DNA of 64,000 nt, from assembly GCA_009841235.1 (NCBI GenBank), contig VXMH01000076.1:62001-126000 (forward strand), given 5' to 3'. The stretch is from Caldilineaceae bacterium SB0661_bin_32 (GTDB lineage Bacteria > Chloroflexota > Anaerolineae > Caldilineales > Caldilineaceae). Below, piece after piece: positions 7,517-55,423 of the stretch (positions within the stretch are counted from its first letter, which is position 1; each line of letters opens with the position of its first letter). A program made the translations under genes and the position numbers. Below the pieces are notes generated by a model. It saw only the letters and a program-made list of their open reading frames with translations, was not told where the DNA came from and did not search any database.

Positions 7517-7556
7517 GGCAAGTTGATAAGTCTAGTTGGAAGAAAGGACAGACTCA

Positions 7557-8599: not shown

Positions 8600-8636
8600 T
8601 GAAGTTATCGAGACAATTCAGCGGCGGGAAAATACT

Positions 8637-9575: not shown

Positions 9576-9593
9576 CGCAGCCTTTTAGCAGCT

Positions 9594-10508: not shown

Positions 10509-10523
10509 GCATCCATCCGACTG

Positions 10524-12056: not shown

Positions 12057-12098
12057 AGGCTTTCTCCTAACCCATATCCTGACGTACGTCCCCTACTT

Positions 12099-12266: not shown

Positions 12267-12281
12267 GACTAATCTCCCCTT

Positions 12282-14936: not shown

Positions 14937-15243
14937 TATTCAATCGCCCGCACCGCCCTCGAAGCCCTTCGCCTTCAAGCCCCTCTTTTCGACCTGGTAT
15001 CACTACCCACCACACTCCAGCACAGGAAGAGTTCTGGTTGCGACCCTCCTCAGTGCCGTCGCTCTGGACGCATCCTCGAACTCGCCGAAATCTGGGAGCC
15101 CAAACCTGGGCACAACCGTTTCTTCACAGTCTTGACCATCACCCATATGCTGCCCGGAAAGAGCCAAGCACGGATGGTCGTCGTTCCTTCTTGCACGCCG
15201 TTTCTCTATCATTGGAGACGTCTAGGGGGCGGCGTATCGCGTT
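14937..15243 (+). other. non-coding gap with an open frame in phase with the amidase
   Basis: After the amidase TAG the same frame stays open for about 105 codons to a TAA near 15251, including WEPKPGHNRFFTVLTITHML, but it has no start codon with a Shine-Dalgarno and no family I recognise. At this base composition an open frame of that length can arise by chance. I call it non-coding, or at most a decayed gene. Confidence 0.35.
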
Positions 15244-15291
15244 TTGACAGGTAAGATTATATATTGTATGATGGATGCGGAATCTGATTCC
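15244..15291 (+). promoter_or_regulatory. near-consensus sigma-70 promoter with palindromic operator
   Basis: TTGACA (15244-15249), a 17-bp AT-rich spacer and TATGAT (15267-15272). The expected transcription start falls at about 15279, exactly where the 13-bp palindrome GGAATCTGATTCC (15279-15291) begins. This is the usual place for a repressor operator. The leader to the TTG start codon is about 56 nt and also contains CGGATCCG. It should drive the desaturase-Rieske gene. Confidence 0.75.
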
Positions 15292-15334
15292 ACATGTTGT
15301 ACGGATCCGATTTTGATCGTGCGAAGGAGAAAAA

Positions 15335-16876
15335 TTGGCGATACGCAACTTCCCCGAACGGGACTATCGTCTGATCAGCACATACAAAACGGATATCCCC
15401 CTCGACGATGACGCCATCGAAGAGAAGGTCGAACAAGCGTGGTGGTCACCCGATATCCCCCGCGACCAACTCAAAGCACTGATGCAGCGCACCAACCGCT
15501 ACGGTCTCCTCGATTTTGGCCTGTGGATCATCCTGCTTGGGGTGAGCGGCTACCTGGCCTGGATCTCCTGGGGCACCTGGTGGGCGATTCTCGCCTTTTT
15601 CATATATGGAACGCTCTACTCCTCATCCGACGCGCGATGGCACGAGTGTGGCCATGGCACCGTGTTTCGCACCCGCTGGCTAAACGAGCTCTTTTACCAC
15701 ATCAGCTCCTTCATGACCATACGTGAAGCTAACCTCTGGCGTTGGAGCCATGCCCGCCATCATACCAACACCTATCTCGTGGGTTATGACCCCGAAATCC
15801 AGGTTCAACGGCCAGCCGATCTGCTCATCTTTGCGATGGACTTTTTCTTTCTGCGGGGCGTTCTAGAAGTACAACGTGTGATCAGACATGCGGCCGGGCA
15901 AATCGGCGACGATGTCCGTAGCTTTGTACCCGCCTCTGAGCTACCCAAAGTGATCTGGACGAGCCGGATTTATCTAGCTATTGTGGCGGCTTTTGCAGTG
16001 TGGGCGGTTGCGGTCGGCAGCTTTCTGCCGATGATGTTCGTGTGGCTTCCGCGCTTTTACGGTGCATTTGTGGAGCAAATGCTCGCCGTAACGCAACACG
16101 CCGGTTTGGGTGAAGATACGTATGACCACCGCGAAAATACGCGCACGATCTATCTGAATCCGGTGTTCCGCTATCTGTATATGAACATGAATTATCATAT
16201 AGAACACCACGTCATACCCATGGTTCCCTACCATGCTTTGGCTGACTTGCACGAGTTGATGAAATCACAGACACCGCCGCCGTATCGGAGCCTGTGGCAA
16301 GCCTACAAGGAGATGATCCCGGCCTTGTACAAGCAAGCGACCAAAGACCCGAATTATTACATAAAACGCCCTATTCCTGACGCCGGCACAACGGTTGAAG
16401 CGTTCGATATCCCCATAGGCGGCGTTGTCACGTCAAGCAGCGCGTTAAGCGACGAACCGGTAGCCTACGTGAGAGACGGCACCAGTGTACCCGCTGAGTA
16501 TGCGGACACATCGTTTGAAGAGATCCGCACAGTAACGGCTGTAAACGCAGATGCCAAAGAAAGCAGTTGGATCGAGGTCTGTAACGTTTCAGATATCGAA
16601 GTGGAAGACGTGCTTGGCTTTGACTACAATGGCCACACGTACGCCATTTATCGTTTGGGGCCTCACGCATTCTTTGCCAGCGATGGTTTATGCACCCATG
16701 AAGAAACCGAATTAGCCGCGGGTTTTGTCTTCGATGGCTGTATCGAATGCCCACTGCATCTAGGGCGTTTCGATATCGAAACAGGCAAAGCATTGTCTGC
16801 ACCCGTCACTGAAGACTTAAGAACATACCCTGTTGAGCTGCGCGGCGATCAGGTATTCATCCAGGTAGAAGGGTAA
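15335..16876 (+). CDS. membrane desaturase/hydroxylase fused to a Rieske ferredoxin (MocD-MocE-like)
   Basis: 513 aa from a TTG start with AAGGAGA just upstream. Residues ~60-340 are a fatty-acid-desaturase-type di-iron membrane domain: hydrophobic spans, then the three histidine boxes HECGH, HARHH and HIEHH. Residues ~410-510 are a Rieske [2Fe-2S] domain with CTH and CPLH ligand pairs about 16 residues apart. In rhizobia, MocD (hydrocarbon oxygenase) and MocE (ferredoxin) are separate proteins of rhizopine catabolism; here electron donor and oxygenase are one chain. No reductase (MocF-like) gene is seen in the window. Substrate unknown; demethylation or hydroxylation is inferred. Confidence 0.88.
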   Translation: MAIRNFPERDYRLISTYKTDIPLDDDAIEEKVEQAWWSPDIPRDQLKALMQRTNRYGLLDFGLWIILLGVSGYLAWISWGTWWAILAFFIYGTLYSSSDARWHECGHGTVFRTRWLNELFYHISSFMTIREANLWRWSHARHHTNTYLVGYDPEIQVQRPADLLIFAMDFFFLRGVLEVQRVIRHAAGQIGDDVRSFVPASELPKVIWTSRIYLAIVAAFAVWAVAVGSFLPMMFVWLPRFYGAFVEQMLAVTQHAGLGEDTYDHRENTRTIYLNPVFRYLYMNMNYHIEHHVIPMVPYHALADLHELMKSQTPPPYRSLWQAYKEMIPALYKQATKDPNYYIKRPIPDAGTTVEAFDIPIGGVVTSSSALSDEPVAYVRDGTSVPAEYADTSFEEIRTVTAVNADAKESSWIEVCNVSDIEVEDVLGFDYNGHTYAIYRLGPHAFFASDGLCTHEETELAAGFVFDGCIECPLHLGRFDIETGKALSAPVTEDLRTYPVELRGDQVFIQVEG

Positions 16877-25241: not shown

Positions 25242-26306
25242 ATGGACAAGGTGAAAATCGCGATCGTAGGATGCGGAAACATCTCGCAGCTCAACGTCCC
25301 CGGTTACCTGCAGCACCCTAACTGCGAGGTCGTCGCGCTGTGCGACAATGCCCCCGGCCGGGCCGAAGCTCGGGCGAAGCAGTGGGGCATCTCGCCAAGG
25401 ATCTACACGGACTACGAGCAGGTCCTCAACGACCCCAATGTCGATGCCGTCGAGCTACTGACGCCACCTCAACACCACGCGATCATGACGGTCGACGGTC
25501 TGAACGCCGGCAAGCACGTGTCCTGCCAGAAGCCGATGTGCACGTCTGTCGCGGAGGCGGACTTGATGGTAGCGGCGGCCAGGAGGGCCAAGACGAAGTT
25601 CCGGATGACCGAGAACTGCATCTATTACCCACCCATCCTCAAGGCCAAGGAGCTTCTCGACGCCGGAGCCATAGGCGAGCCGTCTCTGGTCCGGTTTCAC
25701 ACCGTAATCGGTGGACAGGCTGAGGGGAGCGTGGTGGACACAGACCCTGAAGCGTTCGTCTGGCGCAACGATCCCACGCTGAGCCCCTTGGGCATCGTGT
25801 TTGAAGACGGTGTGCACAAATTCGCGACCGCCATGAAGTGGGTCGGAGATATCGAGAAGGTCTTCGGGATTGTCGGCAAGACCCAGGAGCACTTCATGGA
25901 GATGCCGTCGGCGCTCATCTGGAAGTTCGAAGGAATGGACTGTTTGGGGATGTGCGACTACGTCTACGCGCCGCACATGACGATTCGCACGAAGTACTTC
26001 GCGGGCGACGACTACATGGAGATACACGGCTCTAAGGGCTCCATCCACGTGACGCGGTGCATTGCTGAACTGCTGGATTTTCCCCCAGTCCTGCTGATAA
26101 AAGGGACCGAGACGGAAGGCATCGAGGTTCCCTCGGACTTCATCGAGGGGTTCAACGGAGCTGCCAGCGACTTCATTGACAGCATCATCGAGGATAGACA
26201 GCCCGACCTCGACGCCGAGTTCGCCAAGAAGACGATCCAGGTGGCAATGGCCACCTACGAGGCGGCCAGGACGGAAGGTCCGGCTTATCCCAGGGCGATG
26301 GTCTAG
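25242..26306 (+). CDS. Gfo/Idh/MocA family oxidoreductase, tandem copy 1
   Basis: 354 aa NAD(P)-dependent dehydrogenase. Rossmann start KIAIVGCGNISQLNVPGY, the cofactor-side EKP-type motif present as CQKPMC with Glu replaced by Gln, and an alpha/beta C-terminal domain from about residue 125. AAAGGTAGG precedes the ATG. Acts on sugars, cyclitols or related compounds. It is one of two almost identical neighbours. The Q in place of E in EKP is worth noting because that Lys-containing motif is catalytic and Lys is kept. Confidence 0.9.
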   Translation: MDKVKIAIVGCGNISQLNVPGYLQHPNCEVVALCDNAPGRAEARAKQWGISPRIYTDYEQVLNDPNVDAVELLTPPQHHAIMTVDGLNAGKHVSCQKPMCTSVAEADLMVAAARRAKTKFRMTENCIYYPPILKAKELLDAGAIGEPSLVRFHTVIGGQAEGSVVDTDPEAFVWRNDPTLSPLGIVFEDGVHKFATAMKWVGDIEKVFGIVGKTQEHFMEMPSALIWKFEGMDCLGMCDYVYAPHMTIRTKYFAGDDYMEIHGSKGSIHVTRCIAELLDFPPVLLIKGTETEGIEVPSDFIEGFNGAASDFIDSIIEDRQPDLDAEFAKKTIQVAMATYEAARTEGPAYPRAMV

Positions 26307-26351
26307 AGATCGCCGGCTGGGAAATACCGGCTAGATAGAAAGGTAGGCGCC

Positions 26352-27416
26352 ATGGACAAGGTGAGAATCGCGATCGTAGGATGCGGAAACATCTCGCAGC
26401 TCAACGTCCCCGGTTACCTGCAGCACCCTAACTGCGAGGTCGTCGCGCTGTGCGACAATGCCCCCGGCCGGGCCGAAGCTCGGGCGAAGCAGTGGGGCAT
26501 CTCGCCAAGGATCTACACGGACTACGAGCAGGTCCTCAACGACCCCAATGTCGATGCCGTCGAGCTACTGACGCCACCTCAACACCACGCGATCATGACG
26601 GTCGACGGTCTGAACGCCGGCAAGCACGTGTCCTGCCAGAAGCCGATGTGCACGTCTGTCGCGGAGGCGGACTTGATGGTAGCGGCGGCCAGGAGGGCCA
26701 AGACGAAGTTCCGGATGACCGAGAACTGCATCTATTACCCACCCATCCTCAAGGCCAAGGAGCTTCTCGACGCCGGAGCCATAGGCGAGCCGTCTCTGGT
26801 CCGGTTTCACACCGTAATCGGTGGACAGGCTGAGGGGAGCGTGGTGGACACAGACCCTGAAGCGTTCGTCTGGCGCAACGATCCCACGCTGAGCCCCTTG
26901 GGCATCGTGTTTGAAGACGGTGTGCACAAATTCGCGACCGCCATGAAGTGGGTCGGAGATATCGAGAAGGTCTTCGGGATTGTCGGCAAGACCCAGGAGC
27001 ACTTCATGGAGATGCCGTCGGCGCTCATCTGGAAGTTCGAAGGAATGGACTGTTTGGGGATGTGCGACTACGTCTACGCGCCGCACATGACGATTCGCAC
27101 GAAGTACTTCGCGGGCGACGACTACATGGAGATACACGGCTCTAAGGGCTCCATCCACGTGACGCGGTGCATTGCTGAACTGCTGGATTTTCCCCCAGTC
27201 CTGCTGATAAAAGGGACCGAGACGGAAGGCATCGAGGTTCCCTCGGACTTCATCGAGGGGTTCAACGGAGCTGCCAGCGACTTCATTGACAGCATCATCG
27301 AGGATAGACAGCCCGACCTCGACGCCGAGTTCGCCAAGAAGACGATCCAGGTGGCGATGGCCACCTACGAGGCGGCCAGGACGGAAGGTCCGGCTTATCC
27401 TAGGGCGATGGTCTAG
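26352..27416 (+). CDS. Gfo/Idh/MocA family oxidoreductase, tandem copy 2
   Basis: 354 aa, differing from copy 1 only at residue 5 (Arg instead of Lys) as far as I can see. The same AAAGGTAGGCGCC leader precedes the ATG, so both copies should be translated. Same motifs: GCGNISQ and CQKPMC. Intact reading frames in both copies argue against decay; gene-dosage increase or a very recent event are the simplest explanations. Converges with the 2-oxo acid dehydrogenase operon, 82 bp away. Confidence 0.9.
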   Translation: MDKVRIAIVGCGNISQLNVPGYLQHPNCEVVALCDNAPGRAEARAKQWGISPRIYTDYEQVLNDPNVDAVELLTPPQHHAIMTVDGLNAGKHVSCQKPMCTSVAEADLMVAAARRAKTKFRMTENCIYYPPILKAKELLDAGAIGEPSLVRFHTVIGGQAEGSVVDTDPEAFVWRNDPTLSPLGIVFEDGVHKFATAMKWVGDIEKVFGIVGKTQEHFMEMPSALIWKFEGMDCLGMCDYVYAPHMTIRTKYFAGDDYMEIHGSKGSIHVTRCIAELLDFPPVLLIKGTETEGIEVPSDFIEGFNGAASDFIDSIIEDRQPDLDAEFAKKTIQVAMATYEAARTEGPAYPRAMV

Positions 27417-44188: not shown

Positions 44189-45826
44189 TTAATCTCTTCT
44201 GACGAACCGGCCCGGAACGGCACCGGTGTGCTCTCCGTCGCGTAGAACGCGCTGGCCGTTTACCCATACATCCTGCACTCCGACCGATAGCAGATGGGAT
44301 TCGGCAAAGGTTGCGCGGTCGCTGATGGTGTGCGGATCGAAGAGCACTAAATCTGCGTAGAAACCTGCACGCAGGTGCCCGCGCTTGCGCAGACCGAGGC
44401 GGTCTGCAACCGCGCCGGTCATTTTGCGGACGGCGTCTTCGAGGGTTAGCAGGCGCCGCTCACGCACATAGTGGCCGAGAACGCGGGGGTAGGTGCCATA
44501 GGCGCGTGGATGGGTCGGCCCAAGCTCGGCGGCCCAGGCCGGATCGACGCCGGCGGCGTCGGTGGCGACCTTGATCCAGGGCAGCGGCAACTGGGTGCGC
44601 AGGTTGTCTTCGCTGATGGAGAGGAAGATGGCGCCGATGCGCTGGCCTTCGGAGCGCAGGAGGTCGATGGTGCAGTCGAGCCAGTCCTGGCCCCTCTCGG
44701 CGGCGATCTGCGCAAGATTCATGCCGACGTAGTGCTGGTTTTCTTCTCTGTGGAAACCGACAGGCAACACGCCAGCGGCGCCTCCGCGCGTTGACGGCTG
44801 GCCATTGCTGTCCGAATCTTCCAACAGCTCCTTCCTGATGCGCGCCCGCATAGCCGGATCCTCCAGATTCTCGAAGAAGCTCCCATCGGCCGCGGTCCAG
44901 GTCGGCAGCAGCGAAGAGAGGCCGGTGCCGGAGGCGGCGTAGGGATACATATCGGCGGTGACGTCGAGGCCCTGGGCGCGGGCCTCTTCGATTCGGGCGA
45001 TGGCGGAAGGCATCTTGTGCCAGTTGGCAGTCCCGGAGGCCTTGAGGTGATAGATCTCGACGGGCAGGTCGGCGCGACGGCCTATGGTCAATGCTTCTTC
45101 TAGCCCTTCGAAGAGCTGCGCCCCTTCCGAACGCATGTGGGTAATGTAAAGACCGTTATAACGGCTGACGACCTTGCAGATTTCGATCAGCTCTTCAGTG
45201 TCGGTGTAGGCGTCCGGGGGGTAGATCAGGGCATAGGAGACGCCGAAGGCGCCGTCTTCCATGGCCTCCGCCATGGTGCGCCGCATGAGATCGAGTTCGC
45301 CGGCGGAGGGCCGGCCCATCTCCATGCCCTTGCCGACGTGGCGCAGCGTACCACCGCCGAGAAAGGAGCCGATGTTGGGTGAAACGCCGGCATCTGCGAC
45401 GGCCTGCAGCCAGTCGCCGAAACGTGTCCAGCCGCGGATTCTCCGGCGCCATTCGCCGCTGATCGGCATGGGCAGGATCGAGTTGGCCATGGGATCGGTG
45501 TGGCGGCCGGCAACGGGCGCCGGCGTCCAGGCTTCGCCCATGATCTCGGTAGTCACGCCCTGGGTGATTTTGGAGAGGCAGCGGCCGTCGATCATGAGCG
45601 AGAGGATCGAGTGGCTCTGGATGTCGATGAAACCGGGGCAGGCGACAAGGCCGGAAGCGTCGACAGTTTCGGCGCGGTTGGCGGCGGAAATGCTGCCGGG
45701 CGGGGCGATTGCTTCAATGCGGTCGCCGGAGAGGAGCAGGTCGCCGTGCTGCCAGGGGTTGCCGGCGCCGTCGATGATGCGGGCGTTGCGGATCAGGGTT
45801 GACGAATCAGGCATGGATGTGGTCAA
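44189..45826 (-). CDS. N-acyl-D-amino-acid deacylase-like amidohydrolase
   Basis: 545 aa. Amidohydrolase-superfamily enzyme: small N-terminal beta domain (LIRNARIIDGAGNP), then PGFIDIQSHS where most relatives have HxH, a Glu in TEIMGEAW in the place of the metal-bridging Cys, histidines in YITHMRSEG and IYHLKASG, and Asp in VATDAAG. The Gln instead of the first His removes one ligand of the second, weaker metal site; the tight site seems intact. Start overlaps the stop of the upstream serine hydrolase (ATGA type). Probable substrate: N-acyl D-amino acids or dipeptides. Confidence 0.85.
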   Translation of the reverse strand: MTTSMPDSSTLIRNARIIDGAGNPWQHGDLLLSGDRIEAIAPPGSISAANRAETVDASGLVACPGFIDIQSHSILSLMIDGRCLSKITQGVTTEIMGEAWTPAPVAGRHTDPMANSILPMPISGEWRRRIRGWTRFGDWLQAVADAGVSPNIGSFLGGGTLRHVGKGMEMGRPSAGELDLMRRTMAEAMEDGAFGVSYALIYPPDAYTDTEELIEICKVVSRYNGLYITHMRSEGAQLFEGLEEALTIGRRADLPVEIYHLKASGTANWHKMPSAIARIEEARAQGLDVTADMYPYAASGTGLSSLLPTWTAADGSFFENLEDPAMRARIRKELLEDSDSNGQPSTRGGAAGVLPVGFHREENQHYVGMNLAQIAAERGQDWLDCTIDLLRSEGQRIGAIFLSISEDNLRTQLPLPWIKVATDAAGVDPAWAAELGPTHPRAYGTYPRVLGHYVRERRLLTLEDAVRKMTGAVADRLGLRKRGHLRAGFYADLVLFDPHTISDRATFAESHLLSVGVQDVWVNGQRVLRDGEHTGAVPGRFVRRD

Positions 45827-46722
45827 GCGTCAGAGAATGTGTCGTACAGGAGCCGGCCGATGCGTCCGAAGGCTGAGTCGATGGCGATGGGCTGCTCGCT
45901 ACGGGCAATGGGGTCGTCGGAGACGGCTTCGTCGTCCCAGAGGGAGAAGGCGGTGACGGCCACGTGGGCGTTTTCGCCGGCGTAGATGATGCCGCTGTCG
46001 TTGCGGATGCCGGGGAGGGTGCCGGTTTTGTGGGCGCAGGGCGTGCCGGGCGGCAGGTAGCGCGGCAGGCGGTCGTTGAGCTGCTGCTTGAGGAGGATGT
46101 CGAGCATGGCGTCGCAGGCGGCGCGGCTGACTGTCTCTCCGCGCCAGATGCGGGCCAGGAGCTCGGTGAGGGCGGCGGGCGTGCCCGTGTCGTTGTCGGG
46201 GCCGAGGCTGTAGCAGACGCCCTCCCGGTTGCGCGGCCCGGCGGCGAGGGCCAGCATGTCCTGGGTCGGGTCGGAGGAGGGGAGGAGGTCGTCGAACAGC
46301 TCGCGGATGGTCAGAGGCACGTGGATGTCGGTGAGGCCCAGATCGTGCATGGCACGGGTGACGCTGCCTTCACCGAGGCGGTGCATGACCATGTCGGTGG
46401 CGGTGTTGTCGCTGATGATGATCATGAGCGTCAGCAGGTCGCGGACGGTGGGCGCAAGGCCGTCGTCGAAGAAGACGAGGATGCCGCTGGGCAGGTTCTT
46501 TTCTGCGGTGGTCAGCTGCCAGCGATCGTCAAGGGTGAAGAGGCCCTCTTCGATCTGGCGGAAGGCTTCGACGAGGACGGGGATTTTGAGGACGCTGCAG
46601 AGCGGATACACGCGCTCGGCGTCTACGTCGAAACGCTGCCCGGACTCGAGGTGAAGGGCGGAGACGGCCATTTCGGCGCCGCTGTCTGCCGTGATATCGC
46701 GGATGTCGGATTCGAGAGACAT
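45823..46722 (-). CDS. class A beta-lactamase-fold serine hydrolase
   Basis: 299 aa from the ATG at 46722; the frame is open further upstream, but the sequence there is not protein-like. Catalytic elements: Ser43-x-x-Lys46 in CSVLKIPV, SDN (104-106) and KTG (232-234). A clear Glu166-type omega-loop motif (ExxLN) is not visible, and there is no signal peptide, so a cytoplasmic peptidase or amidase is likelier than an antibiotic-degrading beta-lactamase. Coupled to the D-amino-acid deacylase gene by a 4-bp overlap, which suggests joint handling of D-amino-acid or peptidoglycan fragments. Confidence 0.82.
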   Translation of the reverse strand: MSLESDIRDITADSGAEMAVSALHLESGQRFDVDAERVYPLCSVLKIPVLVEAFRQIEEGLFTLDDRWQLTTAEKNLPSGILVFFDDGLAPTVRDLLTLMIIISDNTATDMVMHRLGEGSVTRAMHDLGLTDIHVPLTIRELFDDLLPSSDPTQDMLALAAGPRNREGVCYSLGPDNDTGTPAALTELLARIWRGETVSRAACDAMLDILLKQQLNDRLPRYLPPGTPCAHKTGTLPGIRNDSGIIYAGENAHVAVTAFSLWDDEAVSDDPIARSEQPIAIDSAFGRIGRLLYDTFSDA

Positions 46723-46756
46723 GGACGGTTTCCGAGGGTTCGATTGGTTGGCGCGG

Positions 46757-47674
46757 TCAGGGCATGAAGTTCTTGAGATAGCGCCCGCTCTGGACGAGGG
46801 AGGCTTTGCGGCTTTCGAGCGAGTCTTCGTAAGCGCGGTCCTCGACTTCGATGCAGACGGGGCCGTCGTAGCCGACGTCGCTGAGGACGGAGAAGAACTG
46901 GCCCCAATCGATGTCGCCCAGGCCGGGCAGTTTGGGCACGTGGAACTCAAGCGGGGTGGCCATGATGCCGACTTCGTCAAGACGGTGCTTGTCGAGGCGC
47001 ACGTCCTTGGCGTGGACGTGGAAGAGCTTGTCGGTGAAGTCCCTGATCGGCTTGAGGTAGTCCATGTGCTGCCAGATCATGTGGGAGGGGTCGTAGTTGA
47101 GGCCGAAGTTGTCGCTGGGGATGTCGGCGAACATACGCCGCCAGATGGCGGGCGTGTGGGCCAGGTTTTTGCCGCCGGGCCATTCGTCGTTGGTAAAGGC
47201 CATGGGACAGTTTTCGATGCCGATCTTGACGTTGTGGTCTTCGGCGAAGCGGATCAGGGGCGTCCAGACTTCGAGGAAGCGGGGCCAGTTGTCGTCGACG
47301 GACCTGGTCCAGTCGCGGCCGACGAAGCTGTTCATGATGCCGATGCCCAGGAGTGCGGAGGCCTCGATGACTCGTTTGATGTGGTCGATGGCGACCTGGG
47401 CTTCGTCCTGGTCCGGGGTCAGGGGGTTGGGGTAGTAGCCGAGGCCGCTGATGGTGATGCCGGCGGAGGCGGCGAGCTCGTTGACGCGGGCGGCGTCTGC
47501 TGCGGTAAAGCCGACGACGTCGATGTGGGTGACGCCGGCGTAGCGGCGCTCGGCCTTGCCGGCGGGCCAGCACATGAGCTCGACGGTGCTGAAGCCGTTG
47601 TCGGCGGTAAATTGGACGACCTCTTCGAGGGAGAGGTCAGGCAGGATAGCGCTGGCGTAGCCTAGTTGCATCAT
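46757..47674 (-). CDS. sugar phosphate isomerase/epimerase-like TIM-barrel protein
   Basis: 305 aa AP-endonuclease-2-like fold. Likely metal ligands: Glu in IGIENCPM, Asp and His in YDPSHM, His in HVHAKDV, and Glu in [12 protein letters not shown]. Acts on sugars or cyclitols as isomerase, epimerase or dehydratase. It lies downstream, in the same direction, of the ribose-type ABC and Gfo/Idh/MocA genes at 54257-60139, from which it is separated by the low-GC three-gene block. The pairing of this family with Gfo/Idh/MocA is common in sugar and inositol operons. Confidence 0.88.
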
Positions 47675-47749: not shown

Positions 47750-49987
47750 TCAACCTGGCTGTAGAAGGTTCATCCGATTGGCCATTACGAGCCACTCCTT
47801 TGTGCCACTTACATCAAATGCTTTGGCTCCATATCCTTCATCCAGAAGACCTTCGGGCAACAGATGATCGTATTTCTCCGTGTGTTTGTCCTTTACCAGT
47901 CTGGCCAGATCAGTATTGCTTACACGTCTATCCTCAACAAAAGCCTTTAAGCGCTTGGAGACTGCCGCATGAGAAGCATCGTGGATTTCGATAATTCCTG
48001 CAAAATTACTCGCTGTGTAACCGGCTCTTACCATCAGCATAGTCAATGTATTCACGATCTGATCCCCCGTCCAGGGAATCAGGTAAACATATTTTCCATT
48101 GCTGACTATGCGCCTGCTTTCCAACTTCAGATCGCGGAATGTAGTCAGTCCTTCCTGAAACAGCTTCCTCGCAGTATCATCCATGAAATCAATCTTAGTC
48201 CCTCTGACATCAACCCGGTAATCTCCCTCCAAGTAGAGTTTCAACATTTCCTGACGAACACGCTCGTGAACAGACATACCACTGCCGTGGAATACAGGTG
48301 GCTTGCCTCCCGCTGCAGGAGACACATAAATCACTTTTCTTTCAACATCGATATCCATAACTTTCCAACGCCTGCCTCCAAATACAATATGTTGCTCCTG
48401 CGCTACCGGGGAATCCACAGGCAGAGTCCCCAGCGTCTTCCCGCCTTCCTTGACGACGATTCGATAATCCTGCGATGCATGGAAAACCGAATAGAAAGAA
48501 AAGTGGTTCACCAGATTTTCACCCTGTTCTGCCAGGACCAATTCACCGCTGGACAGTTGCGTTATCAGACGCCTTTGGCCCATATCAGTAAGCAGGGTCT
48601 TGAAATGCTCTACTGTAACCTTTTCGAAAGGGCCAAATCTGCACAGCAGCGACCATAGTTGGTCTGCTCCCACGCCTCCCCATTGGGCGATGATCGCGAG
48701 AATCTGGTGTAAGAGGGTCGAAAAGTGAAACAGACGAGTGTCTGCCGGCTCGTACCATTTTCTGAGCAGAAGGTGGATCATCGCTACGCACTGGAGCAGT
48801 TCTATGCGCAGTTTGTCGGAAAGGCTTGCGTTCGCAGTCAACTCCCTCTCGGCAATGAACATGCGCAGAATCGCAGGATCGCCACGGCGACCGGAGCGCC
48901 CCAGCCGCTGCCGGAGGCTTGCCACAGAGTGCGGCGCAGTGACTTGCGCAATCGAGTTGACCTTGCCGATATCGATGCCCAGCTCCAAAGTCATGGTACA
49001 GACAGCGGTTGTGGGCAACTTCTCTTTTTGCAGACGACGTTCCAGAGCGCCGCGAAGCTCTTTGGAAAGCGAACCGTGGTGGGGGAAGAATTCGTTGGGC
49101 AGGAAATCCTTTTCGCATAAATCGCTTAGCAGCGCTGCATAAAGTTCAGTTCTCCCGCGACTGTTCGCGAAGACGAGATGAGAGTCGCCCCGCAGGACCT
49201 CAAATAGATCTCTGGCAACCCGTTGATCCGTTGGGGCTGTTAATTCGTTGAGCGCGCGCGTTTCGCTGGAAGCGTAATCGATGTAACCTCGCACCTGCAT
49301 TCTCAAGGCGCCCCGACCTTCCGAATCGACAATTAGCTTGCATGGGAAGTCATTGTCCGGTCTCAAGAAACGCAGGACGCCATCCATATCTCCCAAAGTG
49401 GCACTTAGCGCTAGTCTAGGGATAGGGGTTCGTTGACGACCGAGGAGATGTTCCAATCGAGTGAGCAGAGATTGGAGATGGTGACCACGCTCGAAACCTA
49501 TAAAGGCATGGTACTCGTCGATGACGACGTACTTTAGTGACTCAAACGCTGCCCGCACCCATCCGGCATCTCGAATGAGTCGAGCCTCAAGCGATTCTGG
49601 CGTTATGAGCAAAATGCCTTCGGGAAATTGCCTGGCAGCCCTCTTTTTGGACTGGGGGCTGTCGCCGTGCCAGGGAGTCACCTTCATGTCCAGCATTTCG
49701 CAGAGGCTCTCCAGCCGGCGATACTGGTCATTGATCAAAGCCTTCAAAGGGCTTATATACAGAATACCAAAACCATCGGACTCGCCGGCTGTGGCACTGC
49801 AGGCAGGAAGAAAGACGGCCTCCGTCTTTCCGCCGGCGGTTGGCGCACTGATTACGACATCTGTTTTACCGGAAAGAATCGGTTTGGTGGCGCGCTTTTG
49901 AATCGCCCGCAGGTCCCGCCATCCCTGTTTGTAGACCCATTTCTGAACAGCGGGATGCAAGAGCGAGAATTCGTCGTTCATAGTCAC
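47750..49987 (-). CDS. SF2 DEAD/DEAH-type helicase, Lhr/BrxHI-like
   Basis: 745 aa. Q-motif region (LRAIQKRAT), Walker A APTAGGKT (48-55), motif II DEYH (157-160), motif III SAT (195-197), and motif VI QRLGRSGRRGD (360-370), with ELGIDIG before it as in Lhr-type DNA helicases. Residues 380-745 are a C-terminal extension without a domain I recognise. Start GTG overlaps the preceding stop by 4 bp; an ATG lies two codons on. Third gene of the TerB - ATPase - helicase block; presumably unwinds or translocates on DNA. GC is much lower than in neighbouring genes. Confidence 0.87.
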   Translation of the reverse strand: MTMNDEFSLLHPAVQKWVYKQGWRDLRAIQKRATKPILSGKTDVVISAPTAGGKTEAVFLPACSATAGESDGFGILYISPLKALINDQYRRLESLCEMLDMKVTPWHGDSPQSKKRAARQFPEGILLITPESLEARLIRDAGWVRAAFESLKYVVIDEYHAFIGFERGHHLQSLLTRLEHLLGRQRTPIPRLALSATLGDMDGVLRFLRPDNDFPCKLIVDSEGRGALRMQVRGYIDYASSETRALNELTAPTDQRVARDLFEVLRGDSHLVFANSRGRTELYAALLSDLCEKDFLPNEFFPHHGSLSKELRGALERRLQKEKLPTTAVCTMTLELGIDIGKVNSIAQVTAPHSVASLRQRLGRSGRRGDPAILRMFIAERELTANASLSDKLRIELLQCVAMIHLLLRKWYEPADTRLFHFSTLLHQILAIIAQWGGVGADQLWSLLCRFGPFEKVTVEHFKTLLTDMGQRRLITQLSSGELVLAEQGENLVNHFSFYSVFHASQDYRIVVKEGGKTLGTLPVDSPVAQEQHIVFGGRRWKVMDIDVERKVIYVSPAAGGKPPVFHGSGMSVHERVRQEMLKLYLEGDYRVDVRGTKIDFMDDTARKLFQEGLTTFRDLKLESRRIVSNGKYVYLIPWTGDQIVNTLTMLMVRAGYTASNFAGIIEIHDASHAAVSKRLKAFVEDRRVSNTDLARLVKDKHTEKYDHLLPEGLLDEGYGAKAFDVSGTKEWLVMANRMNLLQPG

Positions 49988-51294
49988 AGAGTGAAATCGG
50001 CCAAGGTATCTGAAGAGTCCTCTATCTCGGGCATATCGCTGGGGTTGTCGTCCGGAATGGCAACGGAACCGATAAGGTCTTTCCAGTCCAGATCACTATT
50101 CTGCTCCAAGACCGAAAGCATGTCAGCGAATTCTCTGATAGTATTGCGGGGCGTTCGGAAATAGGCGTCACCAATTGTATTGCTGCAGTGGCGCAGAAAT
50201 GCCTCCAAAGCTTCATCCGGAACAAGATATCGCGTTTCATCGCCTGACGCGAATACGCGCCTGATGTTTTGCAAGAGAATGTAGACCTCTTCTGGTGTCA
50301 GGTTGGCCAAGCGAAGGGTAGGAGAGGAGTAATCGACAACACCCGCTCTCTGCGCAAAACTGTTTTCAGCCAATCGAGACTGTAGCGCCTCATAGCTGTA
50401 AAGTCCTCTGCGCGTGTCAAGGAGAAACTCGGGCGTGCCGCCCAGCAGAAACCCCATGTGTTCGGCAGTGCCCTGAAGACAGTCGTTGAGAATCCACAAA
50501 ATCTGTTCGTAGTTCGACAGGCGGGCCCGTGTGCTGCTGAGTTTGTAGAGATTTACCATTTCGTCCAGGCAGACCAGTAGACCTCGATACCCGGCCTGCC
50601 TCACGAGCAGACTCATGATCTTCAAACTGCTGTAAAAGGATGTATCCGAAATGAAGTCGCGCACGCCAAGCGCCTTGCGCGTATCGGTTCTTGTCGAGAA
50701 TTCCGCGCGCAGCCAGCGGACGGCGTTTGACTTCAGTTCGTCATTGTCAGTCTCATGTCCGTGCCAGTAGGCTTCAATCACCTTGGCGAAATCGTAGCCG
50801 CCGACATGTTCGGCAAGCGATGAAAGACGATCATCGATAATGGAAGAAACGGTGACGCCCCTTTTGTCGGCTTCCTGCAGGGCGAGATTTACAAATTTCT
50901 CGACAACGGCGGTCAGGGCGTTGCCCTGTGGCCTGTTCCGGGTCGCCATGTTGCGCATAAGTTCGGAGTAGAGAGCTCGGGCCTGGCCTGCGGATGCGTG
51001 AATCCGTCTGTTTGGCGCCAAGTCCGCGTTGACCGTCACCAGCTGTTTTTCGAGAGCGATGGACCTGACCACGTTCAAGAAAAAGGTCTTGCCGGAACCG
51101 TATTCGCCGATAATCAGTCGAAACGCGGATCCTCCTTGCGCGATGCGGTCAACGTCTCTGTTGATCGATTCAATCTCGTTTACGCGCCCGACCTGTATGT
51201 GCTGAATGCCGACGCGAGGGGCGACGCCGGCCTTGAGTGACTGGATGATTGCGTCCCGCTCCCTGGCTCTGATGCGCGTTCGTCGGCTGGCCAT
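49984..51294 (-). CDS. DUF2791 P-loop ATPase, BREX BrxD-like
   Basis: 436 aa. Walker A GEYGSGKT (63-70), Walker B LLVCLDE (239-245) and the family hallmark GTPEFLLDTRRGLYSYEALQ (286-305). These mark the BrxC/BrxD (DUF2791) AAA-like ATPases. In type 2-like BREX systems BrxD accompanies the helicase BrxHI, and here too the helicase gene follows with a 4-bp overlap. No brxC, pglX, pglZ, brxA or brxB is in the window. Two bp separate it from the TerB gene stop. Likely a DNA-loading or switch ATPase. Confidence 0.87.
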   Translation of the reverse strand: MASRRTRIRARERDAIIQSLKAGVAPRVGIQHIQVGRVNEIESINRDVDRIAQGGSAFRLIIGEYGSGKTFFLNVVRSIALEKQLVTVNADLAPNRRIHASAGQARALYSELMRNMATRNRPQGNALTAVVEKFVNLALQEADKRGVTVSSIIDDRLSSLAEHVGGYDFAKVIEAYWHGHETDNDELKSNAVRWLRAEFSTRTDTRKALGVRDFISDTSFYSSLKIMSLLVRQAGYRGLLVCLDEMVNLYKLSSTRARLSNYEQILWILNDCLQGTAEHMGFLLGGTPEFLLDTRRGLYSYEALQSRLAENSFAQRAGVVDYSSPTLRLANLTPEEVYILLQNIRRVFASGDETRYLVPDEALEAFLRHCSNTIGDAYFRTPRNTIREFADMLSVLEQNSDLDWKDLIGSVAIPDDNPSDMPEIEDSSDTLADFTL

Positions 51295-51296
51295 CG

Positions 51297-54107
51297 TTAT
51301 TGCCCCTGTGACTGCAAGGCCGCAATCTCTTCGGCGATTTCAATATCAATGTGGACGGCGCTGCCTTCTTCAATCAGCGGTGCGCCGACATGAGCAAACG
51401 CCCAGTCGTTGATCGTTTCGACGGCCCCGTCGGTCATCAACTGCAGGCCATCGCAGAGCCTCTCCATCTCCTCATGCGTCCATTCTTCTTTGGCAATGAG
51501 CTTGTCAAAAAGGCGTCGATATTGGGTATCCAATCCGGGAACTGACCCGCTGCCGGTCGGCGCTGCGATCGGTGTTTCAGTGTCAGATTCTTCAAGAGGA
51601 TCTTCATCCACGAGAATCGACTCGAGGACGGATTGGGCCTCTCTGGTTTCCTCTTCGTACCGGCGCAACAGTTCATGGTCTAATGAGAAGGCAGAGGTAG
51701 AGCCGTCCTGTGCCTTGAACGGGGTTGCAGATGAGGTTCCGCTCTTTCGCTCCGGGCGCGGCAACCTGCTGGAAGCAATGCTGTGAATATCGCGGGCGAC
51801 CATCCCTTTGTCGAGACCCAACTGCGTGTAGAGCTTTTCAAGTTGCCTGATTTCTGCGGGATCGATCTTGCCGTCAGCCAGGGCTACGCCGACCAACACA
51901 TGGCTGATGGCAACCTTTTCGCTGGCGCTGAGCGCATCCAGACCCTTCTTCAGCCCTGTCTTGCCGGGAGGTGTATGCAGCCCCCAAAGCGTGTAGGCAT
52001 AGAGCGAGCGTTTCTCAGTTTCCGTAAGCCGACTGTTATGGGCAATTGCATCGTTCAAGGCGCTTGCCTCAGAGTCGCTGATGTGTTCGTCAGCGAAAGC
52101 GACCAGGGCGCCCAGGCGTAGCATGATCACAACTTTGTTGAACTCGCTGGATGGCGCAAAATCCAGCCCGTGTCCACCGGCAAACAGCGCAATTTTGCCG
52201 TCAATATCGGGCTTGGCATGATGGAAGCGGATATCCGGAGCGATGCCATAGCCGGCCTTCTCTGCAACATTCGACAGCATTTGAGCTTCTTTGCTATTGA
52301 TTGCGGAGGGGGCCTCCTCGCCAAGTTGGCTCAGCAGCGACGCTACCGAAACCAAACTTTCGAGATGGATTATGTCGTGTTGATCAAGCCGCTCTTTTCC
52401 CAATGTGCGGTCAGCCATCGACTGTGCTGAGGCCGTGCCGCCGGAATCGGACAGCTTCGTCTTCATCCAAACCTTAAACCGTTCAAGTTGCGAATAGGGC
52501 CGCAGTGAGACCAGGTCATCGGGGAGGAGAGCGAGGGCTTGGAGAGACTCGGGTGAATTGCCGGTTTTGCCAAGGAACCGGCTGAACGAATCCAGTTCAT
52601 CGGCGCAAGACCCGGCCAGAATCATCAGTTTTTTGAATGGCGTTTTCATGCGACTGACATCAGGCAGATCAAGATCGGGAGCAGGAATCAAGTACTGCAG
52701 GGCCGGGTTGGCCGGAAAGTATTCGAGTCTCAACTTGGCTCTACCCGGTTTCAGGGTCAAGCCGGCGCCGAATTCCTGGTTGTAACGCATCTTGAAGAGC
52801 GTATCGTATAGTTCCGGGCAGCGCCGCGCGGGGGTGCGCAATGTGAAGTCCGGGTGACTTCTTATCCAGGCCAGGGCTAACTCCGCCCGAACAGGCTCTC
52901 CACTTTGGGCGGTTTCCGCGAGCGCAACTTTGAGCGCCGAGTTGAAGCTGCTTTTCGCAAACAACAGTTCATCGTCCGGTGGCTCGTCAAATTTCCGATA
53001 GTTGATGGCCCAGACATATGAAAACAATCTGGAAACGCAGCTTCTGAAGGAACGATGGCCGCCATAGACGCTTTTCAACCGACTTAGCTCTTGCATCAGG
53101 GCCTTTCGTTCGTCATCTGAAACCGTTCCATCCATATCATCGATCAATAGTCGTCTTTCGATGCCACAAAAGTAGAGAAGGACATAATCTATGAATGTTT
53201 CGGGGTCACTGCGGTCGCTGGCCAGCCAGGCAAGAAATTCCGCGCGGTCTTGGGGGGTGAAACTGCCATAACCATACCAGTATTCCGGTCGTTCACCGAC
53301 GTACTCGGTTGCGTCGGCGTCAACGTCCAGAGTGGGATCTACCAGTGAGGGGTCATCATCCAATTCGAAAGGGTCCGGACTCTTCAAGTGGCCGCCAACG
53401 TAGAAGAATCCGCGCTGAATCGCAAAGGCGCCTATCTTGACCGTTTCACCCGGCTGGACCCATCTGGTCGGCTGCTGTTTTTTGGCCCTGGATTTTGGAA
53501 AAAATCCTTCTGACAGGTCAATTCGGAATTCGATCAGTTCTGGGAATATGGATTTTGCCTTTTCCAGGAACTCGGCAAGGCTTCGAACGCCTGCCAGTGG
53601 CGGCTTATCCGTTTTCGTCCCCTCTTCCGCACCTTCGATCAGGAAGCCTGCAACAGGGTTGGGGATTGCTTTCGATGTCCTGGCTGCTTTCTCGTTCTTT
53701 GCTCTTGCTTTTGTCAGACGCTCTGCAAGCCTGCCGGCGCTTCTTCCCAGCTGGTTGCACTGGTCCTCATACCGTTCCAGGATCGCCACTTCATCGGCAA
53801 GTCGTCTTTCCTTGCGATAGATGATAGCAAGCTGTTCGTAAAACCAGGGGGCTACGCGGTCGGCCCCTCCCGGATCTCTCGACTCGGCCTCGGTCGCGTA
53901 AATCAGCCTGAGCAGCAGCGCGATGGCTTCCTCGTGCCGCTGTTCTCGTTTCAACCGCTTAACCTCTTCAACATAAGCCGTGAAATGTTCGCCATCCACG
54001 AATCCCGGATGATCAAAGTGCAGATCAGCCATTTCTTCCTCTGGCATATTCGCCCTACTTGACAGAAATTCTGCCACTCTTTTGCGCCTTTCGATTATGT
54101 CGGCCAT
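51297..54107 (-). CDS. TerB_N-TerB-TerB_C domain protein
   Basis: 936 aa, cytosolic, no signal or membrane span. Residues ~35-130 look like TPR-type helices (KREQRHEEAIALLLRLIYAT). TerB_N spans ~215-430 (GAFAIQRGFFYVGG, YWYGYGSFTPQDRAEFLAWL, YFCGIERRLL); TerB itself ~655-775 with acidic helices and ALADGKIDPAE; TerB_C ~815-930 (EEWTHEEMERLC, GAVETINDWAF). AGAGGAA precedes the ATG. TerB domains are proposed metal-binding stress-response modules; the N/C additions are linked by comparative genomics to DNA-processing gene sets. It is the first gene and probable sensor or scaffold of the block. Confidence 0.87.
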   Translation of the reverse strand: MADIIERRKRVAEFLSSRANMPEEEMADLHFDHPGFVDGEHFTAYVEEVKRLKREQRHEEAIALLLRLIYATEAESRDPGGADRVAPWFYEQLAIIYRKERRLADEVAILERYEDQCNQLGRSAGRLAERLTKARAKNEKAARTSKAIPNPVAGFLIEGAEEGTKTDKPPLAGVRSLAEFLEKAKSIFPELIEFRIDLSEGFFPKSRAKKQQPTRWVQPGETVKIGAFAIQRGFFYVGGHLKSPDPFELDDDPSLVDPTLDVDADATEYVGERPEYWYGYGSFTPQDRAEFLAWLASDRSDPETFIDYVLLYFCGIERRLLIDDMDGTVSDDERKALMQELSRLKSVYGGHRSFRSCVSRLFSYVWAINYRKFDEPPDDELLFAKSSFNSALKVALAETAQSGEPVRAELALAWIRSHPDFTLRTPARRCPELYDTLFKMRYNQEFGAGLTLKPGRAKLRLEYFPANPALQYLIPAPDLDLPDVSRMKTPFKKLMILAGSCADELDSFSRFLGKTGNSPESLQALALLPDDLVSLRPYSQLERFKVWMKTKLSDSGGTASAQSMADRTLGKERLDQHDIIHLESLVSVASLLSQLGEEAPSAINSKEAQMLSNVAEKAGYGIAPDIRFHHAKPDIDGKIALFAGGHGLDFAPSSEFNKVVIMLRLGALVAFADEHISDSEASALNDAIAHNSRLTETEKRSLYAYTLWGLHTPPGKTGLKKGLDALSASEKVAISHVLVGVALADGKIDPAEIRQLEKLYTQLGLDKGMVARDIHSIASSRLPRPERKSGTSSATPFKAQDGSTSAFSLDHELLRRYEEETREAQSVLESILVDEDPLEESDTETPIAAPTGSGSVPGLDTQYRRLFDKLIAKEEWTHEEMERLCDGLQLMTDGAVETINDWAFAHVGAPLIEEGSAVHIDIEIAEEIAALQSQGQ

Positions 54108-54256
54108 CCGCAGTTCCTCTTAGGTGCTCATTGTCCCCTGTTCAACCTGCCCTGCTGCCGAACCGGCTCTTGCAGTTCCCGTTTTGCCTTCATGTTATGT
54201 TTCCCATGGCGAACACGCTGACGATGACGGAAACAGGCGAGAGGCGCAGCGGCATG
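54108..54256. other. junction between low-GC block and sugar operon
   Basis: 149 bp probably holding the promoter of the TerB gene (no consensus found) and the right edge of the low-GC block. TTCAACCTG at 54141-54149 also occurs at 47749-47757, at the other edge. Confidence 0.35.
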
Positions 54257-55423
54257 TTAGTTCCATTCATCCGTCCCCTTAATTTCCACCCACCGCTCCC
54301 CTTCGTGACTCTCCAGGATGGCCTCGCAGAGGACGATCTCCTTATGCCCGTCTGCGAAGGTGGGGAAGGGCTCGGGGGCGCTGAAGTCACCGGCGGCGAT
54401 GTAGTCGTAGAAGGACTTGAAGGAGTGCTTGAAGGAGTCGTCGTAGCCCTCGTTGTGACCGCCGGGATAGGCGATGTGGGCGCGGGCGGCTTCGGAGACG
54501 AGGCCGGGGTCGCGGAGCAGCTGCTGGTTGGCCTGGTTGCGGTGGCCGATCCAGAGCTCGTTGGGCTGTTCGCTGTTCCAGGCGACCGAGGCTTCGCTGC
54601 CCGCGATCTCGTAGCGGAGACAGTTCTTGCGGCCGGCGGTCATCTGCGAGACCCAGAGTGAACCGTGGGCGCCGTCGGAGAAGCGCAGAAGCGCCGCCCC
54701 GCTGTCCTCGGTCTCGATGTCGATGGATTCGGTGGCGTCGGGCGCCTGCACCTTGGCCGAGAAGGTCTCGACTTCACCGAGGGGGCGCTGGCGGGTGGTG
54801 TGCACGGTCTTGAGGTCGGCCTGCACGGCGGTGACGGAGAGGCCGGTGATGAACTGGACGAGGTCGAGCCAGTGGGTGCCTATGTCGGCGACGGCGCGCA
54901 GTTTGCCGCCTTCGCCGCTGAGGACGCGCCAGTTGTAGTCGGTTGGGTAGAGGAGCCAGTCCTGCACGTAGCTGCCGGTGATGGAGTGGATGCGGCCCAG
55001 CGCGCCGCTCCGGATCATGGAGCGGACTTCCCAGTTGAGCGGGTAGAAGCGCATGTTGTAGTTGACGCCGGCGGCGAGCCCGCTCTCGCCCGCCAGCTTT
55101 ACGAGCGCGCCGGATTCGGCTGAGGTCATCGCGAGCGGCTTTTCGCAGTGGACGTGTTTGCCGGCCTGCAGGGCCTGGCTGGCTTGCTCGAAGTGATGGC
55201 GGTTAGGGGAGGTGATGTGCACGGCTTCGACTTCGCCGTCGGCAAGCAACTCGGAAAAGTCGCTGTAGGCTTTGGGGATGCCGAGACCGGCGGCGGCGCG
55301 GCGGGACTTTTCAGCGGAGGAGCCGAGGATTCCGGCCACGTTGATACCCAGGCGGCGCAGCCCTTCGGTGTGGGCAGGGCCCATGAAACCGGTTCCGACG
55401 ATGGCTGCGTTGGAGACGCTCAT
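54257..55423 (-). CDS. Gfo/Idh/MocA family oxidoreductase
   Basis: 388 aa. Rossmann motif [19 protein letters not shown], substrate-side CEKPLAMT with the catalytic Lys, [10 protein letters not shown], and a C-terminal domain. NAD(P)-dependent dehydrogenase for sugars or cyclitols. Last gene of the ribose-type ABC operon (63 bp after the permease) and distinct from the 25242/26352 pair. Its normal downstream partner may be the isomerase at 46757, now 6.6 kb away beyond the low-GC block. Confidence 0.9.

What the first reader, a model, noticed from the sequence alone, without database searches (positions are those of the whole stretch)
47750..54107. TerB_N/C protein + BrxD-like ATPase + Lhr/BrxHI-like helicase: candidate stand-alone defence or DNA-processing system
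Three tightly coupled - strand genes (2-bp spacing, then 4-bp overlap) encode a 936-aa TerB_N-TerB-TerB_C protein, a DUF2791 ATPase with the BrxD hallmark GTPEF..RRGLYSYEAL and an SF2 helicase with ELGIDIG and QRLGRSGRRGD. BrxD and BrxHI are known as accessory BREX proteins, yet no BREX core gene (methylase, PglZ, BrxC) is visible. The TerB protein may replace the core as a sensor or scaffold. TerB-linked DNA-processing gene sets have been proposed from comparative genomics; I do not know of a functional description of this exact trio.
Basis: partly seen in the sequence, partly recalled or inferred. Interest (0 to 1): 0.85.

Follow-up and report, generated by a model that had tools for sequence, protein, structure and literature searches.

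The report
A Shango anti-phage system, sensor altered
The three genes are a copy of Shango, a phage-defence system already shown to work in other bacteria; here it sits in a Chloroflexota genome, between two metabolic genes where sister species carry other DNA or nothing, and its first protein has lost the membrane-anchor-like segment that most of its relatives carry.

Summary
In detail: three - strand genes (47750-54107) encode a TerB_N/TerB/TerB_C protein, a BrxC/D-type ATPase and a Lhr-like helicase. The trio is not undescribed: PADLOC names the proteins SngA, SngB, SngC, the Shango system, whose anti-phage activity was shown from P. aeruginosa PA14 (PMC10250203). PglZ is absent from the host assembly. 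New details: (1) 80 of 80 kept relatives have A-B-C in order. (2) The first 130 residues of SngA hold a membrane-like segment in 62 of 79 relatives, against 11 of 346 other SngA blocks, 0 of 80 SngB and 0 of 79 SngC. (3) In the window this anchor is gone; an out-of-frame remnant lies upstream, and this SngA evolves faster than its sisters' while SngB and SngC do not. (4) The genes, probably of gammaproteobacterial origin, sit at one site that in 17 congeneric genomes holds Shango (5), nothing (6), DNA without long ORFs (4), a DruE-type system (1) or a probable Shango scar (1). Known system, new member; activity of this copy is uncertain.

The parts
51297..54107 (-). sngA: TerB_N-TerB-TerB_C protein, 936 aa; anchorless form with a TPR-like N-terminal module
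   Evidence: Pfam, PADLOC SngA 3.2e-75 over residues 191-931, AlphaFold2 model mean pLDDT 80.9, pTM 0.62
49984..51294 (-). sngB: BrxC/BrxD-type AAA+ ATPase, 436 aa (GEYGSGKT and LLVCLDE read by me as Walker A and B)
   Evidence: Pfam 6.8e-148, PADLOC SngB 2.8e-178 against BrxD 5.8e-43, sequence
47750..49987 (-). sngC: Lhr/BrxHI-like SF2 helicase, 745 aa, GTG start
   Evidence: PADLOC SngC 5.5e-262 against BrxHI 8.3e-118; model mean pLDDT 85.8; first-ranked PDB match M. smegmatis Lhr 5v9x, TM 0.71 on the query
54131..54254 (-). remnant, mostly out of frame, of the lost N-terminal anchor and linker of sngA
   Evidence: local alignment to L015 sngA scores 54, best of 1000 dinucleotide shuffles 36; L014: 45, reached by 1 of 1000; L013 and L060 not beyond chance (725 and 43 of 1000). 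Stops in the sngA frame upstream of the ATG
54115..54121 (-). AAGAGGA, Shine-Dalgarno-like, 7 nt before the sngA ATG
   Evidence: sequence
53670..53993 (-). TPR-like helical module of SngA (residues about 39-146)
   Evidence: helices in the model; TPR chains such as 2kcl Z 10.2, rmsd 3.5, 97 aligned; Pfam TPR_14 only at E 1.1
52827..53453 (-). TerB_N domain (residues 219-427)
   Evidence: Pfam 1.5e-37
51804..52118 (-). TerB domain (residues 664-768)
   Evidence: Pfam 8.1e-10; PDB relative 2h5n, hmmsearch E 0.0014 with the SngA alignment, Foldseek E 0.13
51324..51701 (-). TerB_C domain (residues 803-928)
   Evidence: Pfam 2.2e-23
54257..55423 (-). left border of the insertion site: Gfo/Idh oxidoreductase gene
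   Evidence: match at E 1e-100 or better in 16 of 17 congeneric genomes
46757..47674 (-). right border of the insertion site: TIM-barrel (AP_endonuc_2) gene
   Evidence: match at E 1e-80 or better in 17 of 17 congeneric genomes

Best explanation
The trio is a Shango anti-phage system (sngA-sngB-sngC), probably acquired from a gammaproteobacterial lineage and kept at one chromosomal site in part of a Caldilineaceae genus. Most likely mechanism, inferred and at about 35%: SngA is a scaffold and sensor, ancestrally tethered to the inner membrane by its N-terminus. It recruits SngB, a BrxD-like AAA+ ATPase (PMC12839542 classes BrxD as ORC-Cdc6 type), which loads the Lhr-like helicase SngC on incoming phage DNA; strand separation or remodelling of that DNA then blocks its replication. 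Shown here: domain content, gene order, a membrane-like segment in most SngA, helicase and ATPase motifs in place, no nuclease domain among the Pfam matches. Inferred: the complex, the loading step, DNA as target, membrane sensing. In the window the anchor was lost, so this copy is either a soluble variant whose TPR-like module took over localisation, or the beginning of decay of SngA. The confidence given is for identity and kind (Shango, defence), not for the mechanism.
For: PADLOC names all three proteins. Anti-phage activity of the type system (PMC10250203, passages). Trio in 80 of 80 loci and 9 of 9 distant Chloroflexota. No PglZ in the host assembly. Membrane-like segment (17-residue hydropathy 1.6 or more) in the first 130 residues of 62 of 79 SngA, against 11 of 346 other 130-residue blocks of the same proteins; at 2.0, 46 of 79 against 1 of 346; 0 of 80 SngB and 0 of 79 SngC. 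SngC folds like Lhr. Base composition: GC3 0.56-0.64 in the trio, 0.76-0.89 in 7 flanking genes. Tree: the 5 Caldilineaceae copies (support 1.0) join 5 gammaproteobacterial ones (support 1.0), apart from the other Chloroflexota. One fixed site with alternative contents. SNIPE is a precedent for a defence protein held at the membrane by an N-terminal segment (PMC13190303, abstract and passages).
Against: No phage assay on this copy. 17 of 79 SngA fall below the threshold, among them all 10 Psychrobacter copies, so an anchor is not essential everywhere. The rest of SngA reaches 1.6 somewhere in 14 of 79 proteins and at residue 456 of the window SngA (1.71), so the threshold is not strict; hydropathy is not a trained topology predictor. 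The window SngA departs from 15 of 141 near-invariant columns, more than its 4 relatives (5, 5, 5 and 9), though L085 and L086 depart at 27 and 24, and it evolves faster than its sisters, which fits decay as well as change of function. dN/dS is below 1 (0.40/2.23 for window-L013) but dS is saturated, and undefined for the gammaproteobacterial pairs. Deeper nodes of the tree are weak (0.29, 0.53) and its sample is the window's best matches. The loading step rests on an analogy that PMC12839542 proposes for BrxD and BrxHI (passages).
Confidence: 0.85

Rival explanations
1. The copy is Shango by descent but is decaying in this genome: loss of the anchor disabled SngA, and the system no longer defends.
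For: Anchor lost, remnant mostly out of frame. SngA-specific acceleration: with outgroup L060, 133 to 77, 121 to 68 and 117 to 64 unique changes against three sisters, p about 1e-4 each, with SngB slower and SngC equal. 15 of 141 conserved columns changed. A congener, G003, holds what looks like a scar of sngC.
Against: All three ORFs are open; a Shine-Dalgarno-like site precedes the present start; SngB and SngC show no acceleration; SngA without the segment occur elsewhere, as in 10 Psychrobacter copies.
Confidence: 0.3
2. The main target is plasmid or other mobile DNA rather than phage, with phage restriction a side effect.
For: No stage of action is stated in the passages read; a helicase with a loader could act on any incoming DNA (inference).
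Against: Relatives of SngB are themselves common on conjugative plasmids (545 of 695 plasmid records with a match are typed conjugative; the whole trio was seen in both plasmid regions opened), and the type system inhibits several phages.
Confidence: 0.1
3. A host DNA-repair module, unrelated to defence.
For: Lhr and MrfA, the first-ranked solved folds for SngC, are DNA helicases (their repair roles are recalled).
Against: Patchy presence, SngB in 5 of 17 genomes of the genus; deviating base composition; a DruE-type system at the same site in a congener; published phage assays on Shango.
Confidence: 0.04
4. A stripped-down BREX type 2 system.
For: SngB and SngC are homologues of BrxD and BrxHI.
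Against: No PglZ in the assembly; SngB scores 144.6 bits against the NCBIfam BrxD cut-off of 350; the Shango models fit far better than the BREX models.
Confidence: 0.02

Closest known systems
Shango (SngABC), P. aeruginosa PA14 and E. coli
   Same: Three genes: TerB protein, ATPase, DEAD/DEAH helicase; all three PADLOC models match
   Different: Window SngA has 936 aa, lacks the N-terminal membrane-like segment and has a TPR-like N-terminus, which among the 10 SngA aligned only L014 and L015 share
BREX type 2 BrxD-BrxHI dyad
   Same: Linked ATPase and helicase with Lhr-like C-terminal domain (PMC12839542 passages)
   Different: No PglZ in the assembly; a TerB protein instead; Shango models score far higher
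Other TerB defences: Bunzi, Dionysus
   Same: TerB domain or TerB homologue named for them in PMC10952713 and PMC12926258 (passages)
   Different: Not compared here by sequence; PADLOC gave only SngA for the window TerB protein
SNIPE, Zorya, Kiwa (membrane-poised defences)
   Same: Works-like comparison only: defence proteins at the inner membrane (passages)
   Different: No sequence kinship tested or claimed; SNIPE has a GIY-YIG nuclease, no nuclease domain was matched in this trio
Druantia DruE
   Same: A DruE-type gene occupies the same chromosomal slot in the congener G015 (PADLOC 9.3e-219), and SngC matches DruE models weakly
   Different: Two genes (1194 and 1641 aa), no TerB domain matched in the 1194-aa partner

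Membership tests
Shango | TerB-domain protein (SngA) | tested here: met
   PADLOC SngA 3.2e-75; Pfam TerB_N, TerB, TerB_C over their cut-offs
Shango | SngB ATPase | tested here: met
   PADLOC SngB 2.8e-178, model positions 4-438 of 439
Shango | SngC helicase | tested here: met
   PADLOC SngC 5.5e-262, model positions 4-717 of 720
Shango | three genes adjacent, TerB protein then ATPase then helicase | tested here: met
   same order in 80 of 80 relatives
Shango | N-terminal membrane-like segment of SngA (frequent feature found here, not a published criterion) | tested here: not met
   window SngA peaks at 0.80 in its first 200 residues; 62 of 79 relatives reach 1.6. Not defining, since 17 of 79 lack it
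Shango | anti-phage activity of this copy | not testable with these tools
   needs a phage challenge
BREX | PglZ | tested here: not met
   no match in G000; the assembly is 98.68% complete by the listing
BREX | BrxD by NCBIfam equivalog cut-off | tested here: not met
   144.6 bits, cut-off 350
BREX | BrxC or methylase gene beside the trio | tested here: not met
   5 neighbours scanned are metabolic-type; BrxC/D-like pieces do occur on contigs C75 and C38
TPR proteins (SngA N-terminus) | TPR fold | tested here: inconclusive
   TPR chains such as 2kcl (Z 10.2) and 3ma5 (Z 9.6) align to residues 37-147, but so do others (Dock2, Z 10.7), and such Z is common for helical models; Pfam TPR_14 E 1.1

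The most novel reading that the evidence does not exclude
Shango is a membrane-poised DNA surveillance system: SngA's N-terminus is an exchangeable localisation module (one membrane helix, two helices, two helices plus TPR, TPR alone, or very long extensions) on a constant TerB_N/TerB_C core that delivers the loader SngB and the helicase SngC to DNA entering the cell. The window carries a natural anchor-loss form in which the TPR-like module took over.
Probability: 0.35. Interest if true: 0.6.

Novelty: new member of a known kind. Interest (0 to 1): 0.38.

Why it matters
A 2026 review lists Shango's mechanism as unknown (PMC12926258, passage). The membrane-like segment of SngA gives a simple, testable starting point, and the Caldilineaceae copies are natural variants with and without it at one chromosomal site. 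The site itself is a small slot in a row of metabolic genes of a little-studied phylum, where Shango alternates with a DruE-type system, DNA without long ORFs and empty junctions.

Tried and rejected
Rejected: that the trio is undescribed. Rejected: that distant Chloroflexota SngB-SngC pairs have unrelated partners; I noted this after (note), and searches showed TerB_N and/or TerB_C in all five partner proteins in question, so that note is wrong (corrected). Rejected: a BREX remnant. No RNA family at gathering score in the window or in the inserts L107-L109; I had suspected a decayed group II intron from their look and could not support it. No tRNA or tmRNA in the window, so no tRNA attachment site seen. 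Foldseek of SngA against PDB gave nothing at E 0.001 or better; parts other than 24-148 were barely tested by the second look, so no claim is made that TerB_N or the middle region has a new fold. phmmer of SngB against PDB sequences gave nothing at E 0.1. Pfam on the N-terminus of window SngA: only TPR_14 at E 1.1. The first paper search (TerB, BrxHI, DUF2791, two of three) found 0 papers. A search for sponge Chloroflexota defence papers listed 3, none opened. PMC12458937 (passages) does not hold the words Shango, SngC or DruH.

Neighbour test: 38 of the 80 loci were picked by me, and 6 of these dropped for the size limit, leaving 120 proteins from 32 loci (up to two complete ORFs of 120 aa or more on each side, mechanical ORF calls). 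At E 1e-30, 29 PADLOC families match; the 25 shown each match one protein only, and none of these 25 is a BREX family. At E 1e-10 Pfam shows 25 of 105 families; phage integrase in 3 proteins is the commonest. So no recurrent fourth gene was seen; some defence neighbours are present. The 32-locus sample and the strict threshold limit this.

Controls against my reading: of nine relative-rate triples without the window, SngA is uneven at p below 0.05 in two (0.028, 0.019), SngB in one (0.027) and SngC in one (0.0071); the triples share sequences. With outgroup L018 the window SngA test gives p 0.078, 0.0074 and 0.0013.

Full report
What is there. The window is C100:62001-126000 of a 5.2-Mb, 122-contig assembly, G000. 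The closest named relatives of its SngB are MAGs of Caldilineaceae, a Chloroflexota family (phylum recalled). Three - strand ORFs encode 936, 436 and 745 aa with a 2-bp gap and a 4-bp overlap. Pfam gives TerB_N, TerB and TerB_C; BrxC_BrxD; DEAD and Helicase_C. PADLOC gives SngA 3.2e-75, SngB 2.8e-178 and SngC 5.5e-262; the BREX alternatives are BrxD 5.8e-43 and BrxHI 8.3e-118. The trio is therefore Shango. PMC10250203 (passages read) describes Shango of P. aeruginosa PA14 as a three-gene system with TerB-like protein, ATPase and DEAD/DEAH helicase that gives a modest 10-100-fold change in plating against many, not all, phages in PAO1 and stronger protection in liquid, and cites an independent finding in E. 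coli (about 10-fold, two phages). The paper I take that to be (Millman 2022) is not held and was not read.

Conservation. The one scan of genome contigs with SngB found 513 relatives; the best 80 loci were kept. In 80 of 80, A, B and C follow in this order on one strand; a few have a gene cut by a contig end or split (L048, L053, L057, L082). In 400 genomes drawn from the phylum, SngB at E 1e-60 is in 10, the host and nine others with 38-58% identity. These nine also have the trio: SngB and SngC by my profiles in 9 of 9, SngA by profile in 5 (L126-L130), and by PADLOC or Pfam in the other 4 (L131-L134). In L131 the order holds but about 1.2 kb separates SngB and SngC. PglZ reached its cut-off in 4 of 51 genomes (the host, with none, and 50 of the 80 carriers); the contig lengths differ from those of the Shango contigs. 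Four more genomes had matches below the cut-off, not followed. SngB relatives are also on plasmids: 695 of 72,556 records, 545 of them typed conjugative, 452 from Klebsiella and 144 from Salmonella; the two plasmid regions that I opened hold the whole trio.

Structure. SngC was predicted with mean pLDDT 85.8 and pTM 0.85; its first-ranked PDB match is the Mycobacterium smegmatis helicase Lhr, 5v9x, TM 0.71 on the query. A helicase tree in PMC12278908 puts SngC with BrxHI, DruE and DpdJ in a potentially distinct clade (passage). SngA was predicted with mean pLDDT 80.9 and pTM 0.62: the TerB part resembles 2h5n, and residues 28-147 resemble TPR chains, with the caution that helical models often score this high.

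The membrane-like segment. Many SngA begin with a hydrophobic helix such as MEFWLLVGGAVIVYYVIKA (L024). In a 17-residue Kyte-Doolittle scan of the first 130 residues, 62 of the 79 SngA not cut by a contig end reach 1.6 and 46 reach 2.0. In the same proteins 11 of 346 other 130-residue blocks reach 1.6 and 1 reaches 2.0. Of the SngB 0 of 80 and of the SngC 0 of 79 reach 1.6. The 17 SngA below it are 10 Psychrobacter copies, three with a weaker hydrophobic start (L017, L046, L063, at 1.38-1.44), two fragments (L036, L053), L062 and L080. SngA of an E. coli plasmid and of a Pseudoalteromonas plasmid have it (2.25 and 3.15). Caldilineaceae relatives L013, L014, L015 and L060 have a longer hydrophobic stretch that may be two helices. 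I saw no mention of a membrane segment in Shango in the papers found by the searches (30 of 44 listed, listing only), nor in the passages read. The library lacks most subscription papers, the E. coli Shango paper among them.

The window copy. Its SngA starts before a TPR-like module and has no such segment; its first 200 residues peak at 0.80. The 149 bases between the Gfo/Idh stop and the sngA start align to the anchor and linker of L015 with score 54 (best of 1000 shuffles 36) and of L014 with 45 (reached by 1 of 1000); L013 and L060 do not exceed chance. Most aligned blocks are out of frame with sngA (3 of 4 for L015, 6 of 8 for L014), and the sngA frame has stops there. So the first part of the anchor is missing and the rest has decayed; an assembly error is not excluded. 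A Shine-Dalgarno-like AAGAGGA precedes the present ATG. Relative-rate tests: the window SngA has more unique changes than each of three sisters with outgroup L060 (133/77, 121/68, 117/64; p about 1e-4) and with L016 (p 0.0021, 3.6e-6, 5.8e-5); with L018 p is 0.078, 0.0074 and 0.0013. SngB and SngC of the window are in no case significantly faster; SngB is slower with L060 (p 0.003-0.02). Of nine control triples without the window, SngA is uneven at p below 0.05 in two. At columns that are 90% conserved in the other rows, the window SngA departs at 15 of 141, its four relatives at 5, 5, 5 and 9, and L085 and L086 at 27 and 24. dN/dS of sngA is below 1 in the pairs where dS could be computed (0.18 for window-L013), but dS is saturated in most of them. 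Whether this is relaxed constraint or adaptation is open.

Origin and site. GC3 is 0.56-0.64 in the trio and 0.76-0.89 in seven flanking genes. In a tree of SngB plus SngC (89 tips, one locus dropped; the sample is biased to the window's best matches, and I set the root on four distant Chloroflexota), window, L013, L014, L015 and L060 form a clade (support 1.0) that joins five gammaproteobacterial copies (support 1.0), away from the other Chloroflexota; two deeper nodes are weak. A transfer from Gammaproteobacteria is the simplest reading, not proven. Window, L013, L014, L015 and L060 have the trio between the same Gfo/Idh and TIM-barrel genes. In the 17 genomes of the genus: Shango in 5 (G000, G001, G008, G011, G012); border matches 65-125 bp apart in 6 (G006, G007, G009, G010, G013, G016); 1.2 kb or more of mutually related DNA in 4 (G002, G004, G005, and G014, which breaks at a contig end), longest ORF 146 aa, one with a run of N, and no match to Sng proteins beyond chance level; a two-gene set with DruE in G015 (PADLOC 9.3e-219; its 1194-aa partner matches no PADLOC or Pfam model at E 0.01); and in G003 a Gfo/Idh gene in pieces with a 42-47-aa stretch like the C-terminus of SngC (tblastn about 1e-9 in a search of the 14 site stretches, 53-57% identity). 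The last suggests that Shango was once there and was lost; without a species tree I cannot say whether the empty sites are losses too.

How it probably works. No nuclease domain is among the Pfam matches. PMC12839542 (passages) suggests that BrxD loads or activates BrxHI; by homology SngB may load SngC. A membrane-held SngA would place the pair where DNA enters, as SNIPE does with its nuclease (PMC13190303, abstract and passages). These steps are inference.

Verdict. The most useful outcome is the testable membrane-like segment.

Noticed in passing
L093 (G000:C75:42000-61000), 5729-14289: Elsewhere in the host genome, a RecJ-like gene, a 323-aa ORF, two BrxC/D-type ATPases (428 and 477 aa) and a BrxHI-like helicase ORF (492 aa) in a row; no TerB or PglZ match among the five scanned with Pfam. 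Next to it a HEC-01-like pair (3707-5787). Possibly another stand-alone BrxD-BrxHI system.
   Followed up: partly
L094 (G000:C38:1-18000), 5775-16245: HNH endonuclease, two BrxC/D-like pieces, a SNF2 helicase near ZorD/DpdE and a 1282-aa AAA_30 protein in a row.
   Followed up: partly
window 25242-27416: Tandem duplication of a 354-aa gene (MDKVKIAIVGCGNISQLN..., oxidoreductase-like by eye), repeat unit 1110 bp, 97.7% identical in DNA.
   Followed up: partly
L110 (G015:C1:453900-462900), 203-8709: DruE-type helicase with a 1194-aa partner unmatched in PADLOC and Pfam, at the Shango site of a congener.
   Followed up: partly
L107, L108, L109, L113: Mutually related inserts of 1.2 kb or more without long ORFs at the same site in four congeners, mostly 85-92% identical, with internal repeats; no Rfam match for L107-L109.
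   Followed up: partly
L014 6162-6503 and L015 6163-6504: A 113-aa ORF (MSKKKKGIDS...) between Gfo/Idh and sngA, seen in these two of the four relatives listed; no PADLOC match for the L014 copy.
   Followed up: no
L133 1-5145 and L134 6070-10098: SngA-like proteins with long stretches before the TerB part and no Pfam match there: at least about 1070 residues in L133 (its ORF runs off the fetched stretch) and about 870 in L134.
   Followed up: no
window 45823-46980: Class A beta-lactamase-fold protein (PF13354 4.3e-58), below the cut-off of each of the 25 NCBIfam matches shown, beside the Shango site.
   Followed up: no
G012:C2:115200-116357: The Gfo/Idh border gene of one Shango carrier has an in-frame TAG in its match.
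   Followed up: no
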